DNA of 64,000 bases from Candidatus Bathyarchaeota archaeon A05DMB-2 (lineage in GTDB: Archaea; Thermoproteota; Bathyarchaeia; Bathyarchaeales; Bathycorpusculaceae): the NCBI GenBank assembly GCA_018475625.1, contig JAAKEZ010000001.1, positions 297,289 to 361,288 on the forward strand. Direction: 5' to 3'. Made by a program: the position numbers and the translations under genes. Numbering within the stretch: the first letter of the stretch is position 1; every line of letters begins with the position of its first letter. Positions 15,105-21,076 of this stretch are shown piece by piece. The notes beneath the pieces are model-generated. The model was not told the DNA's origin, searched no databases, and saw nothing but the letters and a program-made list of their open reading frames with translations.

Positions 15105-17129
15105 ATGCAGAAGACAGGCGAAGAGAAGCGTGAAGTGATAAGCTACTGCTGTTCAAATCCTAATTGTAAGAGCGTTTTTACCAGACCTAAAAAACTGGTT
15201 TATTATTTGTGTCCAACTTGTCAAACACTTGTTAATATGGAGACAGTGCTGGGAAATGAGAAAACGAAGAAACAGGGGCCAACAGAAGAGGACATCAAAA
15301 GAAAAGAAGCCGAACGCTTAACGGCGGAGCAAAAAGCAGTTGCTTTAGAGGCTGAGCTAAAAGCAGAACGGAAGAAGTCAGAGCGACTGGAAGCAGAGCG
15401 GCTAAAAGCAGAGAAAAGGGCAAAGCGGTTGGAGTCAGAGCTTGAGGCTTCGCGATTAGAGGTGAGGCGGAAGGAGGAGCAGTTTGAAGCTCAACGAGAA
15501 GCGGAAGTACAAGCGGCAGAACGGGCAGAGGCAGAGCGCTTAGAAGCAGAACAGAAAATGGCGCGATTAGAGGAAGAACGCCGAGGAGAACGCCTTGAGG
15601 CAGAACACAGGATAAAGCAGTTAGAAGAGGAACTACGAGCAGAACGCGAAAAGGCAGAGCAAGAAGTCGCGCAGGTAGAGGCAGAACGTCTCGATTTAGA
15701 GCACAAGGCGAAGCAAATAGCGTCAGAGCTTTTGGAGTCGGAAAGAAAATCGAAACGGTTCGAGACTGCGCTGAAAGAAGCAGAACAAAAAATAGCGCAG
15801 TTAGAGATAAAACGGTTAGAAGCAGAGCAAAAAGCGGAACAGTTAGAAGCGCAGCGAAAGGAAGCGCAAACAGAAATAGAACGGTTAGAGGCGGAGCGGC
15901 AGGAAGCTGAGCGGCAGCAGGTAGAACGACTGAAAGCAGAGCGAAAGAAAATGCAACAGCTAGACGCAAAAAGAAAAGCGGAAAACATAGAGGCGAAAAA
16001 GAAAACAAAAATGCTCGAAGCGAAACTTCAGGAAACAGAACAAAAATCAAAACAACTGGAGTCAGAACTGCTGGCAGAACGAAAGAAAACAGAGCAGATT
16101 GAGACTGAACGGACGGAAGCAGAAAGAAAGTTGGAATTACTGGAGGCGCAACGGGAAGAAATACAAAGAGAATTAGAGCGACTGGCGACAGAGCGAAAGA
16201 CAGACCAGATGGAAACTGCACGAAAAACAGAACAGCTAGAAACAAAACTTTTAGAAGCCGAGGAAATGGCAAAACGTTTGGAGGCAACACTGGAGGCAGA
16301 ACGCAAGGAGTCGCAACAAAAAAAACGACAACTCGAGTCAAAACTGTTAGAGGCAGAAAGAAAGACGAACCTTTTGGAGTCTCAACTGGTGGAGGAACAA
16401 CGAAAATTAGAGTGCTTGGAGGAGGAGCGAAGGGCAGAACGGTTAGAAGCAGAACGACTCGAAGCAGAAAGAAAGGAGGCGGAACGATTGCTATCAGAAC
16501 GGGTGGAAGCACTGAGGATGGAAGCTGAGCGGAAGGCGGAAAGATTAGAGGCGGAACTGATGGAGGCGAAACGGAACGCGGAAAAGTTAGAAGCGGGGCT
16601 CCTGCTAGCAGAGGAAAAAGCAACACAATTAGAATCAGACCTAAAAGCAGAGCAGTTAACTTCAGAACAGATGGCGAGACGATTAGAAGCGCAAAGCAAG
16701 GAACTGGAGCGGTTGGAGGCGGAACGATTAAAGGCAGAGCAGAAATCCCAGCGATTAGAGGAGGAATTAAAGGCAGAACGTCTAGAGGCTCAACTAAAAG
16801 AAGCGGAACGGTTGGAAGCGGAGCGATTAGAGGAAGAACGAAAAGAAGCGCGGCGATTAGAGGTAAAGCAAAAGGTTGAAAGGCTGGCAGAGCAGTTGGC
16901 GAAACGAGTAGAGGCGGAAAGACAGGTAGCAAGTGCAGAAGAGGTAAACAAGCCACCCGATTCTTGGTGCAAGCACTATTTTGGTTATCTTAATCGACGT
17001 AAGAAAGGTGAAGGCATACCAGATTCATGCTTGGCATGCCCCAAATCTTTAGACTGCATGCTTTCTGACCACTATAAGTCAAAGGAACCTGTCGAAGAAA
17101 TCAAGAAATGGTACCCAGTAGAAGCCTAA
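15105..17129 (+). CDS. Long charged-helix protein with terminal zinc-binding clusters
   Basis: A 674-residue protein in three parts. The N-terminus has a zinc-ribbon-like set of Cys (C15, C16, C21, then C36-x-x-C39). Residues of about 60-620 are almost purely Glu, Lys, Arg, Ala, Gln and Leu in repeats such as RLEAERKEAERL, predicting a coiled coil or single stable helix. The C-terminus has a second Cys/His cluster (CKHYFGYL, CLACPKSLDC). There is no signal or membrane segment. The repeats create long antisense open frames that are not genes. The role is unknown; a spacer or scaffold between two zinc modules is the simplest reading. Confidence 0.8.
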   Translation: MQKTGEEKREVISYCCSNPNCKSVFTRPKKLVYYLCPTCQTLVNMETVLGNEKTKKQGPTEEDIKRKEAERLTAEQKAVALEAELKAERKKSERLEAERLKAEKRAKRLESELEASRLEVRRKEEQFEAQREAEVQAAERAEAERLEAEQKMARLEEERRGERLEAEHRIKQLEEELRAEREKAEQEVAQVEAERLDLEHKAKQIASELLESERKSKRFETALKEAEQKIAQLEIKRLEAEQKAEQLEAQRKEAQTEIERLEAERQEAERQQVERLKAERKKMQQLDAKRKAENIEAKKKTKMLEAKLQETEQKSKQLESELLAERKKTEQIETERTEAERKLELLEAQREEIQRELERLATERKTDQMETARKTEQLETKLLEAEEMAKRLEATLEAERKESQQKKRQLESKLLEAERKTNLLESQLVEEQRKLECLEEERRAERLEAERLEAERKEAERLLSERVEALRMEAERKAERLEAELMEAKRNAEKLEAGLLLAEEKATQLESDLKAEQLTSEQMARRLEAQSKELERLEAERLKAEQKSQRLEEELKAERLEAQLKEAERLEAERLEEERKEARRLEVKQKVERLAEQLAKRVEAERQVASAEEVNKPPDSWCKHYFGYLNRRKKGEGIPDSCLACPKSLDCMLSDHYKSKEPVEEIKKWYPVEA

Positions 17130-17245: not shown

Positions 17246-17995
17246 TCACACGCCAGTCCTAACATTTTCCAAAAAGTCCCTGACGTCAGACGGAGAATGC
17301 CCTGAATAGTACTTGCTGAAGTATCCGAAAACTTCTGTTTGCTCATCCAAGAAAGGCCTTAGTTTGTCAGCCCACGCTTTGATGCTGTTTGTTTTGTCTG
17401 CTTCTCTTCTGCCTAAAGTGCCTTTGACTTTTCTGCGGTCTCCTTCCCACCTCACGTAGATGAAATCTGCGGTTATTTCGCTGGTTTGCGGCATGAGAGG
17501 GCTGTCAACCCACGCCAACGCCACGCTGTTATCCCTGAGGACATTGTAGAAGCCGTCGTTCACCATCTTCTGTTTTCTAACCTCAACCACGTAATGGTGC
17601 TTTTTGGGCAAGTTCCGAAGGAAATCGCGCAGAAGAGGCAGTTGCCCGGTTCCAAACGTGTAAGGAAACTGAAGCAGCAAAGCGCCAAGCTTCTCCTCCA
17701 GAAGCTCAATGCGCTCTAAAAACACCGCCACTTCCTGCTGACAATCTCTCAGCATTTTAACATGGGTTATGACTTGCGGAAACTTTAGCGAAAACAAGAA
17801 ACCCTTAGGTGTTTGCTCCTTCCAGTCTATCACGCTTTGTTTGCGGGGAATGCGGTAGAAGGTGCTGTCAACCTCCACCGTATCGAACTGACTTGCGTAG
17901 TAGGCTAAGTATTCTTTTGACGACAGGTTTTCTGGGTAAAAGTTGCCTTTCCAGAAGTCGTAGCTCCAGCCCATTGTGCCCACATGAAGCGTCAT
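17246..17995 (-). CDS. DUF72 family protein (YecE-like TIM barrel)
   Basis: A 249-residue protein with the family's opening HVGTMGWSYDFWKGNFYP, the segment FDTVEVDSTFYRIP and the C-terminal half containing YVRWEGDR and FGYFSKYYSGHSP. DUF72 proteins adopt a TIM-barrel-like fold and their activity is not established. It starts 1 base beyond the ligase stop, as the last gene of the end-joining operon, which suggests a link to DNA repair. That link is inference. Confidence 0.9.
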   Translation of the reverse strand: MTLHVGTMGWSYDFWKGNFYPENLSSKEYLAYYASQFDTVEVDSTFYRIPRKQSVIDWKEQTPKGFLFSLKFPQVITHVKMLRDCQQEVAVFLERIELLEEKLGALLLQFPYTFGTGQLPLLRDFLRNLPKKHHYVVEVRKQKMVNDGFYNVLRDNSVALAWVDSPLMPQTSEITADFIYVRWEGDRRKVKGTLGRREADKTNSIKAWADKLRPFLDEQTEVFGYFSKYYSGHSPSDVRDFLENVRTGV

Positions 17996-17996
17996 G

Positions 17997-19391
17997 CTAC
18001 TCCTTTCCTTTAAGCAGCAGCCAACTCTTTTCTCCGGCTTTCTTCAGCCTCACCAACACGTAACGCCCCTTCAGTCTTCCGCCGTTGAGCGTGACCTCTA
18101 TTAGTTTTTCGTCCCAAACCTTTGTTTCATATGAGCCTTTGTCCCATATTGTCACGGTGCCAGCACCGTACTGCCCCTTCGGAATTGTCCCCTCAAAATC
18201 CGCATACTCAAGTGGATGATCCTCGGTTTCAACTGCCAACCGCTTCTCGTCTGAGCTTTCTGGAATCCCCTTTGGCACAGCCCAGCTTCTCAGTACTCCG
18301 TTTTTCTCCAGTCGCAAATCGTAGTGCAGTCTTCGCGCGTGATGTTCCTGAACCACGAAAACCTTTGCTGTCTTCTTTTTTCCGCCGCCTTTGGGTTCTG
18401 TTGTGACGTTGAAGTCGCGTTTTGACTGGTACTCCGCAAGTTCGCCTTGAACTATCTGGTCCAGTGTGCATTCCGAAGGAAGCTTGTCTTCCCGCAAGCC
18501 GAGGAAACGCGGCATCCGCAGCCTCACGTCTTGCGTAACCACCTGACAGCCCACCTCGCAGACCAGTTTGGGCTTAAGCCACGTTACCTCATCAGGAATG
18601 TCCACCGGGAAGGGAGCTGAATCCGTCTCCAACGTTTTGAACGCTTCTAACAGTGTGCGCAGTGTTTCCTGCGAGAAACCGGTTCCAACCTTGCCAACGT
18701 AAACGGGTTTGCCTTCGCTGTTGTAAAGCCCAAGCAGCAAAGCGCCGAATGTTTTGGCTCTGGCACCTGCGCCTTTGGTGTAGCCGAATATGACGCAGTC
18801 GCAGGAACGGAGTTTTTTTATTTTCAGCCAGTTTCCGCTTCTGACGCCAGGTTCGTATGGGCTGTCTTTTTTCTTCGCCATGACGCCTTCCAAGCCTTTT
18901 TGCAAAGCTGCTGCGTAATAGGCTTCGCCGTTCTCCTCCACGACATCTGAGAGCAAGACGTGTTTGCCTTCCTGAACCGAGCTGCGCAGGATTTTCTTTC
19001 TCTCTGTCAAGGGCAGATTGAGCAGGGGTTTTCCGTCTTTCTCGAGGATGTCAAATACCACGTACACCGCTGGCATCCGCAGGTTTCCTAGTTGAATTTC
19101 GGTCGGCGAAACTGCTTTTCCTCTTTCCAGTAGCGCTTGGAAATCGGCTTTGCCTTCTTTCATGACGACGATTTCGCCGTCAAGAACCACGTTGTGCGTT
19201 AGCTTTGTTAGCTCTTCCAGTTCTGGAAAATTGTGTTTCAGTTCTTTCTGGTTGCGGCTTCTCAGGCTCAGTTCTTGGTTGACGTATGCTATGGCTCGGA
19301 ACCCATCCCACTTGACCTCGAACACCCAATCCTTATCCGAGAACGGCTTGGATGCGAGTTTAGCGAGCATGGGCTTGTAGTTGTGGCTCAT
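17997..19391 (-). CDS. ligD: ATP-dependent DNA ligase fused to 3'-phosphoesterase (LigD-like)
   Basis: A 464-residue nick-sealing enzyme of non-homologous end joining. Residues 1-310 are the nucleotidyltransferase and OB domains, with the adenylated lysine K27 in EVKWDG and later motifs DGEIV and EGVMAKKKDSPY. Residues 335-464 are a phosphoesterase domain with H350, H356, D358, R360, H392 and Y396, the same residues and spacings known from Pseudomonas LigD. The order ligase-then-phosphoesterase is opposite to that enzyme, and the polymerase is a separate gene. The start overlaps the Ku stop by 4 bases. Confidence 0.93.
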   Translation of the reverse strand: MSHNYKPMLAKLASKPFSDKDWVFEVKWDGFRAIAYVNQELSLRSRNQKELKHNFPELEELTKLTHNVVLDGEIVVMKEGKADFQALLERGKAVSPTEIQLGNLRMPAVYVVFDILEKDGKPLLNLPLTERKKILRSSVQEGKHVLLSDVVEENGEAYYAAALQKGLEGVMAKKKDSPYEPGVRSGNWLKIKKLRSCDCVIFGYTKGAGARAKTFGALLLGLYNSEGKPVYVGKVGTGFSQETLRTLLEAFKTLETDSAPFPVDIPDEVTWLKPKLVCEVGCQVVTQDVRLRMPRFLGLREDKLPSECTLDQIVQGELAEYQSKRDFNVTTEPKGGGKKKTAKVFVVQEHHARRLHYDLRLEKNGVLRSWAVPKGIPESSDEKRLAVETEDHPLEYADFEGTIPKGQYGAGTVTIWDKGSYETKVWDEKLIEVTLNGGRLKGRYVLVRLKKAGEKSWLLLKGKE

Positions 19392-20188
19392 TTCTTTTCC
19401 AGCTGCTTAAGCGTCTCGCGCAGGGCAATCATGAGCCCTTTGACTTCTTCCTCTGCAGGCTTCTCCACGACTATTTTCTCTCCCTTCAGCTTCTTCGCGA
19501 TGAGTTCTTCCACTTTCCGTCGGTAAGTGTCCTCGTACTCGGTTATGTCGAATTCGCCTGAAAGGTCTTTAATGATTTTCATGGCCAAGTCAAGCTCAGC
19601 TTTTTCAGGCGCCTTAAGCTCTTTCAGCTCTTCAAAGGCTTGCGGGTCCACCACGTCGTAAGCGTATCGCAGCGTGGTTAGCACAAGCGCATCCTTGTAC
19701 GCGTGCACTAGGACAGGGTACTCTTTGGTGCGTAGAGTTATTCTTCCTGCGCCAGCCTTGCCCATTTTCTTGAGTGCGGCGAGTAGCAAGCTGTAAGCGT
19801 CGTTGCTTTTGTCTGGCATCAGGGCGTATGTGGTGTTGAAGTATGTTGGGTCCACGGAGAAGTAGTCGACGAATTTGTCGATGCGGATGCGCTTGTCAGA
19901 TTCTGGTTTGACGGCGTCAAGCTCTTCTTGGTCGAAGACAACATACTCATTTTTGGCGACTTCATAGCCTTTGGCGACTTCTTCCCAGGGAACGAGTTTG
20001 CCGTCCTTGGTGCACACGCGCTCATATTTTAACGGTTGATTGTCAGTTTTGTGCAGGAAATGGAAGTTTATTCCACGGTCGTATATCATGGCGTACAGTT
20101 TAACTGGAACGTTAACTAAACCAATGGTTATGCTCCCCGACCAGATGGCTCTTCTTGACGGTTGAGCGGGTTTCGGTTTTTTCGCCAC
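19388..20188 (-). CDS. ku: Ku end-binding protein
   Basis: A 266-residue prokaryotic Ku: it threads onto double-strand DNA ends and recruits the ligase and polymerase. Family features are the opening RAIWSGSITIGLVNVPVKLY, the core YFSVDPTYFNTTYAL and the helical region ending KVEELIAKKLKGE. The length fits the bacterial-type homodimeric Ku. It starts 1 base after the polymerase stop and ends inside the ligase start, so the three genes should be translated together. Confidence 0.95.
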   Translation of the reverse strand: MAKKPKPAQPSRRAIWSGSITIGLVNVPVKLYAMIYDRGINFHFLHKTDNQPLKYERVCTKDGKLVPWEEVAKGYEVAKNEYVVFDQEELDAVKPESDKRIRIDKFVDYFSVDPTYFNTTYALMPDKSNDAYSLLLAALKKMGKAGAGRITLRTKEYPVLVHAYKDALVLTTLRYAYDVVDPQAFEELKELKAPEKAELDLAMKIIKDLSGEFDITEYEDTYRRKVEELIAKKLKGEKIVVEKPAEEEVKGLMIALRETLKQLEKK

Positions 20189-21076
20189 TTATTTAACCTC
20201 CAGTTTTTGCTTGTTACCAAAAATGTTTTTCCACGGGTCTTTCCTGAGACTCGCTACGTTTGAAATATTGAACTCGGCTGGCTTTATTCTTTTCTTAACT
20301 TCACTCCAGTCTAGCGGGGTTGAAACCGTGGCTGTCGGCACCGCCCTCAAACTGTAAGGACATATCATAGTTCGCCCATGCGAGTTCTGGAGGTAGTCTA
20401 TGAAGACTTTTCCAGGCTTCTTGGTTTCAGAGAACTCCGAGACAACTATCGCGTGTTCTTTAGATAACTGCTTCCCGACTGTGTGGACGAAGGCTCTTGT
20501 TTCCCTGAAAGTGTATTCTCGGGCGATGGGAATTAAGACGTGTAGCCCTTTCTTTCCTGAAGTTTTCACGTACGGTTCAAGCCCAAGCTGGTTTAGTTTT
20601 TCCTTGAGTAAAAGTGCCACTTCGGCGGCATCTTCGTATGTGGCTGGTGGTTCTGGATCTACGTCGAAGAAGACGAAGTCGGGCTTGTCTCGGTGGTCAA
20701 CTGTGGATAAGGGTATGTGGATTTCGATGGCAGCCAAGTTTGCCAGCCAGATGAGCGTGTCAAGGTCGTTGCATAGGATGTAGTGTACGTCGCGTTTGGC
20801 GGTTTCCGAGTAGAGCGTGACGGTTTTCACCCATGATGGTGTGCCTTCAGGGGTATCTTTCTCGTAGAAGCCTTCTTTTTCCACGCCGTCTGGAAACCTT
20901 GTGAGAACCAGCGGTCGATTGGCGAGGTGGCGGAGCATTTTAGGGGCGATTTTTATGTAGTACTCGATTACCTGCGCCTTTGTGACTTTGATTTGGGGAA
21001 AAAGGATTTTGTCAAAGTTGGTGAATTGGACTTTCGTAAGCTTTTCACTCATGTTTCCATTCATCTCCGAACTCAA
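20189..21076 (-). CDS. LigD-type polymerase/primase domain protein
   Basis: A stand-alone 295-residue archaeo-eukaryotic primase family polymerase of end joining; it fills gaps with nucleotides at broken ends. Metal ligands D138 and D140 are in FFDVDP and D227 in FIDYLQ; the conserved KTSGKKGLHV (171-180) supplies the nucleotide-contacting Ser and His. It is the first gene of the operon. In-frame ATGs at codons 1, 5 and 9 leave the exact start open. Confidence 0.93.
   Translation of the reverse strand: MSSEMNGNMSEKLTKVQFTNFDKILFPQIKVTKAQVIEYYIKIAPKMLRHLANRPLVLTRFPDGVEKEGFYEKDTPEGTPSWVKTVTLYSETAKRDVHYILCNDLDTLIWLANLAAIEIHIPLSTVDHRDKPDFVFFDVDPEPPATYEDAAEVALLLKEKLNQLGLEPYVKTSGKKGLHVLIPIAREYTFRETRAFVHTVGKQLSKEHAIVVSEFSETKKPGKVFIDYLQNSHGRTMICPYSLRAVPTATVSTPLDWSEVKKRIKPAEFNISNVASLRKDPWKNIFGNKQKLEVK

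What the first reader, a model, noticed from the sequence alone, without database searches (positions are those of the whole stretch)
17246..21076. Compact archaeal end-joining operon with a ligase-phosphoesterase fusion and DUF72
Polymerase, Ku, ligase-phosphoesterase and a DUF72 gene are spaced by no more than 1-2 bases or overlap. Non-homologous end joining is sporadic in archaea. The ligase carries its phosphoesterase at the C-terminus, the reverse of Pseudomonas LigD, with all known phosphoesterase residues present. DUF72 in the operon points to an unassigned repair factor.
Basis: partly seen in the sequence, partly recalled or inferred. Interest (0 to 1): 0.7.

Follow-up and report, generated by a model that had tools for sequence, protein, structure and literature searches.

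The report
Archaeal break-joining operon with DUF72
A four-gene operon in a Bathyarchaeota-like archaeon carries the genes of a bacterial-style DNA break-joining system plus a gene for a DUF72 protein that keeps the same place beside those genes in distantly related archaea, which makes this very widespread protein of unknown job a likely break-repair factor that can now be tested.

Summary
On the minus strand a LigD-type polymerase, Ku, a ligase with a C-terminal 3'-phosphoesterase (PE) and DUF72 follow one another with gaps of 0 and 1 base and one 4-base overlap; catalytic residues of ligase and PE are intact. The order Pol-Ku-LigPE-DUF72 recurs in Bathyarchaeota, Methanoperedens-type archaea and a Methanomethylicus (26 of 40 archaeal Pol-Ku-Lig-PE loci with DNA left downstream). 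Cassette DUF72 proteins form one clade, and their divergence tracks that of Pol, Ku and LigPE (r 0.84-0.91). In bacteria DUF72 lies within 10 kb of Ku in 7 of 66 Acidobacteriota and 14 of 80 Actinomycetota Ku-bearing genomes (0.7 and 1.4 expected). DUF72 itself is near-ubiquitous (344 of 398 phylum genomes), and three Ku-bearing assemblies show none, so it is accessory. Its predicted fold is a TIM barrel near UV-damage endonuclease, endonuclease IV and sugar epimerases; several residues predicted in print to bind DNA phosphate are kept. Best reading: a complete archaeal end-joining operon whose fourth gene likely encodes an accessory damaged-end recognition or processing factor. No activity was tested. 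The DUF72-Ku link was not found in the papers searched.

The parts
20189..21076 (-). NHEJ primase-polymerase (LigD Pol type), 295 aa from TTG; likely true start ATG at 21052 (287 aa)
   Evidence: PF21686 3.4e-87; TIGR02778 1.2e-80; best solved relative NHEJ polymerase 5dmu, E 4.2e-58; close relatives' alignments start at residue 9
19388..20188 (-). Ku, bacterial/archaeal type, 266 aa, GTG start
   Evidence: TIGR02772 3.6e-77; PF02735; solved Ku relatives; the only Ku match in the genome assembly
17997..19391 (-). Fused ATP-dependent NHEJ DNA ligase (residues about 7-309) and C-terminal LigD-type 3'-phosphoesterase (about 318-463), 464 aa
   Evidence: TIGR02779 and TIGR02777; catalytic residues invariant in 23 rows; model with low-confidence stretch 316-340 between two domains, mean pLDDT 83.4
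17246..17995 (-). DUF72 (YecE-type) TIM-barrel protein, 249 aa, cassette-specific subfamily; predicted accessory end-joining factor

Best explanation
The four genes encode an archaeal non-homologous end-joining (NHEJ) set - polymerase, Ku and a ligase fused to a C-terminal 3'-phosphoesterase - together with a lineage-specific DUF72 protein that likely acts as an accessory factor recognising or trimming damaged DNA ends. Predicted working order, by analogy with the Methanocella and LigD systems: Ku would ring the broken ends and recruit the enzymes; Pol would fill gaps, preferring ribonucleotides; the PE domain would trim 3'-ribonucleotides and 3'-phosphates to a 3'-OH and hand the end across a flexible linker to the ligase domain, which would seal it. 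DUF72, encoded directly after the ligase-PE, would bind the DNA backbone through its conserved phosphate pocket and present or incise lesions that PE cannot remove. Shown here: gene order, families, catalytic residues, recurrence, clade structure, co-divergence. Inferred: every activity and the shared transcript. How likely: complete NHEJ operon about 0.95; DUF72 works with the NHEJ genes about 0.75; DUF72 as an end-processing or lesion-binding protein about 0.4; as a true nuclease about 0.25.
Confidence: 0.6

Rival explanations
1. DUF72 is a lesion-incising or AP/UV-type endonuclease: a TIM-barrel nuclease related to UVDE and endonuclease IV that opens damaged ends so that PE and ligase can finish.
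Confidence: 0.25
2. DUF72 has a general housekeeping or nucleotide/sugar-phosphate role and rides along in the operon for co-expression during stress, without touching DNA ends.
For: Near-ubiquity without Ku; present in 9 of 14 control genomes, E. coli and Thermotoga among them, while Ku rings in 1; epimerase-like fold; absent from some Ku-bearing assemblies; loose, often convergent placement in bacteria.
Against: A separate cassette subfamily co-diverging with NHEJ genes and repeated association with Ku in other lineages are more than a passenger predicts.
Confidence: 0.25
3. Chance: a common gene happens to lie next to a rare operon, and the conserved order reflects only recent common descent of the cassette.
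For: DUF72 is common; several loci of one genus share flanking genes as well.
Against: Same order in Bathyarchaeota and Methanoperedens with Ku only about 60% identical; bacterial enrichment 7 against 0.7 and 14 against 1.4 expected; PE-DUF72 pairs without Ku.
Confidence: 0.05

Closest known systems
Archaeo-prokaryotic NHEJ of Methanocella paludicola (Ku, Pol, PE, Lig)
   Same: Same four activities; the solved NHEJ polymerase 5dmu and phosphoesterase 5dmp are relatives; same PE catalytic set.
   Different: There PE is described as operonic with the polymerase and ligase (passages); here PE is fused to the ligase C-terminus and a DUF72 gene follows.
Bacterial LigD (Mycobacterium, Pseudomonas, Bacillus)
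   Same: Homologous Pol, PE and ligase domains.
   Different: Not one polypeptide: Pol is a separate gene and the ligase precedes PE. Whole-length LigD models score below their cut-offs.
DUF72/YecE family (PF01904), Tm1631 (1vpq)
   Different: Directly behind NHEJ genes; own subfamily with an RWEGDRxxVxGTLG stretch and a GYFSKYYSG motif in the cassette consensus; four other predicted contacts not kept.
PolB2 neighbourhood in archaea and bacteria
   Same: DUF72 reported as enriched to some degree near polB2, with a UVDE-like fold (one passage of PMC11791011).
   Different: That report concerns translesion synthesis; Ku or LigD is not mentioned in the passage seen.

Membership tests
Archaeo-prokaryotic NHEJ | Ku of the bacterial type | tested here: met
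   TIGR02772 259.3 bits, cut-off 150
Archaeo-prokaryotic NHEJ | LigD-type polymerase, ATP ligase and 3'-phosphoesterase encoded together with Ku | tested here: met
   TIGR02778, TIGR02779 and TIGR02777 all over cut-off
Archaeo-prokaryotic NHEJ | PE catalytic residues H, H, D, R, H, Y | tested here: met
   H350, H356, D358, R360, H392, Y396 invariant in 23 rows; reference set from passages
Archaeo-prokaryotic NHEJ | End joining in cell or tube | not testable with these tools
   needs expression and assays
LigD | Pol, PE and ligase in one polypeptide | tested here: not met
   Pol separate; TIGR02776 239 bits (Lig-PE) and 282.5 bits (Pol) against cut-off 373.2
DUF72 (PF01904) | Family profile over cut-off, TIM-barrel fold | tested here: met
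Endonuclease IV | Sequence match to the family | tested here: not met
   Pfam scan returns DUF72 only at E <= 0.001
Endonuclease IV | Fold similarity | tested here: met
Endonuclease IV | Catalytic metal cluster | tested here: inconclusive
   not examined in the model; the paper says that solved DUF72 structures hold no metal there
UV damage endonuclease | Sequence match to the family | tested here: not met

The most novel reading that the evidence does not exclude
DUF72 is an overlooked additional factor of prokaryotic end joining: a TIM-barrel protein of the UVDE/endonuclease IV fold that opens or clears damaged ends for Ku, Pol and ligase-PE, built into a fixed four-gene cassette in archaea and kept near Ku in some bacteria.
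Probability: 0.3. Interest if true: 0.8.

Novelty: new variant of a known kind. Interest (0 to 1): 0.6.

Why it matters
DUF72 proteins are common (344 of 398 genomes of this phylum and 9 of 14 control genomes, E. coli included) and have no assigned job. A cassette in which DUF72 lies directly behind a Ku-ligase-PE set, and co-diverges with it, gives the family defined partners against which to test it. It also shows one end-joining cassette spread over archaeal lineages well beyond the single studied example.

Tried and rejected
Rejected: DUF72 as a partner of standalone PE in general. One search lists 118 PE matches outside Ku cassettes and LigD genes (113 if five fragments are left out); I fetched 80 of them, five of these in Ku-bearing genomes whose PE lies elsewhere. 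Only 3 have DUF72 beside PE, and one more (L173) has a shortened Lig-PE with a DUF72 remnant. In the PE tree L166 and L173 fall with Bathyarchaeota cassettes; L144 and L208 fall with the PE proteins of their own family, one from a cassette and others standalone, so the tree does not prove that their PE came from a cassette.

Rejected: one single clade for all cassette PE domains. The PE tree needs 9 changes for that label and has many weak branches, unlike the DUF72 tree.

Limits: the bacterial Ku-DUF72 count uses all 66 Ku-bearing Acidobacteriota but 80 of the 101 Ku-bearing Actinomycetota. The Poisson expectation assumes random placement and independent genomes, which related genomes are not. 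Bacterial DUF72s in the tree were fetched mostly because they lie near Ku (17 bacterial rows near Ku plus the archaeal L226, against 5 bacterial rows not near Ku), so their grouping is partly sampling; 3 of the 17 fall outside the main bacterial group, and 2 archaeal rows not near Ku fall inside it. The tree is a quick one without bootstrap. The genome's second DUF72 sits on a very long branch, so its place is unsure. Five short DUF72 pieces were dropped (L369, L357, L358, L219 second copy, L223). G395's weak Ku match was not recovered by my own search. No unlinked gene was run as a control. No promoter or transcript evidence was sought. The plasmid Ku survey found 689 records; their neighbourhoods were not read. 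Possible metal ligands in DUF72 were not tested by superposition. The three assemblies without DUF72 are 95-97% complete, so a missed gene is possible.

Literature: no held paper has DUF72 with 'end joining', or with 'archaea' and 'non-homologous end joining'; Bathyarchaeia with 'non-homologous end joining' gives none; Bathyarchaeota with NHEJ gives three, one of them read in passages; two neighbourhood searches gave none; YecE with DUF72 gave three, none read; DUF72 with 'DNA repair' gave eleven, of which three were read in part. Only 30 of the 75 papers matching 'DUF72', a term that also catches DUF72x families, were listed. Bartlett 2013, Aravind and Koonin 2001 and Smith 2011 are not held, so this says only that the link was not found in the papers searched.

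Full report
What is there. The window lies in an unnamed archaeal genome of 2.48 Mb. Its closest named relative by Ku is 'Candidatus Bathyarchaeota archaeon isolate SRBZ_5' (95%, L056). On the minus strand four genes run head to tail from 21076 to 17246 with gaps of 0 and 1 base and one 4-base overlap. They are a LigD-type primase-polymerase, Ku, a ligase with a C-terminal LigD 3'-phosphoesterase (PE), and DUF72. Solved relatives include the NHEJ polymerase 5dmu, the phosphoesterases 3p43 and 5dmp and the mycobacterial ligase domain 1vs0, and bacterial-type Ku. The lysine of KWDG (K27, the nucleotidyl lysine by recalled motif) and the PE residues H350, H356, D358, R360, E390, H392 and Y396 are invariant in 23 aligned proteins; the six-residue reference set comes from passages of the Methanocella structure paper (PMC4797286), matched by order and spacing. 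The fusion model has two domains and a low-confidence stretch at 316-340 between them (mean pLDDT 83.4, pTM 0.59).

How common it is. Ku occurs in 14 of 100 relatives, 25 of 398 genomes of the phylum, this one included, and 23 of 149 genomes of the order of a Methanoperedens. A published survey found Ku plus the LigD ligase domain in 10 of 243 archaea (passages of PMC7719229), and another paper calls NHEJ extremely rare in archaea while reporting its acquisition by the ancestor of Nitrososphaerales (passages of PMC7554672). The PE domain alone is far commoner: 132 of 398 phylum genomes, mostly in open frames under about 200 residues; in the cassettes it is usually fused to the ligase.

Recurrence of the cassette. 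A Ku alignment searched against one genome per species kept the best 80 of 128 confirmed loci; 66 are archaeal. Of these, 41 have Pol, Ku, ligase and PE near one another with Pol separate; in 38 the ligase and PE share one frame, one of these (L108) interrupted. Forty have DNA left downstream, and 26 of the 40 have DUF72 next. The 14 without it are three Bathycorpusculum loci (L062, L068, L069), two other archaea of that surrounding (L071, L072), two Methanoperedens and an uncultured archaeon (L083, L088, L087), one Hydrothermarchaeum (L089) and five Methanomicrobiales (L094, L097, L100, L103, L104). Soil Bathyarchaeota and kin (L112-L119, L124) have Ku-Lig, mostly with a divergent Pol, and neither PE nor DUF72 found next door. 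Three Ku-bearing assemblies, 95-97% complete (G037, G046, G369), show no DUF72 at all, so DUF72 looks accessory.

Phylogeny. In a quick tree of 79 DUF72 proteins the 30 cassette rows and the 3 rows next to a Ku-less PE form one group (SH-aLRT 98). Its neighbours are the Nitrososphaera DUF72 beside a Ku-LigD pair and DUF72s of two other archaeal families. The host genome's second DUF72 falls far outside, on a very long branch whose place is unsure. Branch-length matrices of 27 complete cassettes correlate at r 0.84, 0.88 and 0.91 between DUF72 and Pol, Ku and LigPE, against 0.92-0.94 among the core genes, with 0 of 1000 permutations as high. The cassette therefore behaves as a unit, although shared species history adds to these values and no unlinked control was run.

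Bacteria. All 66 Ku-bearing Acidobacteriota were searched for DUF72: 63 have it, and in 7 it lies within 10 kb of a Ku on the same contig, against 0.71 expected under random placement. Of 80 Ku-bearing Actinomycetota examined (of 101 found), 71 have DUF72 and 14 have it within 10 kb of Ku, against 1.36 expected. Placement is often convergent or beyond the LigD gene, so this is a neighbourhood and not an operon, and the genomes are not independent.

Mechanism committed to. A standard archaeal NHEJ set, with end cleaning (PE) and sealing (ligase) in one chain, plus a DUF72 accessory protein that would bind the backbone at abnormal ends and help to clear them. Only order, families, residues, recurrence and co-divergence are shown. 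The PE-DUF72 pair without Ku in L144, L166 and L208 hints that DUF72 serves end cleaning rather than Ku itself, but the PE tree is too weak to show that all three descend from cassettes.

Novelty. The NHEJ parts are known kinds. The archaeal cassette with a C-terminal PE on the ligase and a DUF72 fourth gene is a variant not found in the papers searched, several key papers not being held.

Noticed in passing
L144:3208-4348, L166:1625-2894, L208:1191-2385: PE and DUF72 genes side by side with no Ku, Pol or ligase found in the stretch held; the genomes show no Ku. DUF72 rows fall in the cassette clade.
   Followed up: partly
L173:3772-4457: Shortened ligase-PE frame and a DUF72 remnant in a genome without a Ku match: looks like a decaying cassette.
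   Followed up: partly
L078:8852-10312 and L326:6820-8280 (same ORF sequence in both): A 486-residue ORF with an RRxRR-like stretch and an HNH-like motif (IscB-like; motif recalled, no family scan run) sits between Ku and ligase-PE.
   Followed up: no
L022:6166-7329, L026:8475-9641, L051:2591-3751, L054:8939-10147, L068:2803-3960, L072:902-2077: An aldo/keto-reductase-like ORF (by eye, no family scan run) between Pol and Ku in Bathycorpusculum and related loci.
   Followed up: no
L095, L098, L099, L101, L102, L105, L107, L111: Methanomicrobiales-type Pol-Ku-PE loci with no ligase found in the stretch held (very little DNA downstream in L098 and L099).
   Followed up: no
window 15105-17129 (+): 674-residue Glu/Lys/Arg/Ala-rich, coiled-coil-like protein with Cys-rich ends and no Pfam match; long antisense ORFs over it look like composition artefacts.
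   Followed up: no
G000:C20:160395-161021 (outside the window; L217): Second DUF72 of the genome, on a very long branch outside the cassette clade.
   Followed up: partly
L112-L119, L124: Soil Bathyarchaeota and kin with Ku-ligase, mostly with a divergently transcribed Pol, and no PE or DUF72 found next door.
   Followed up: partly
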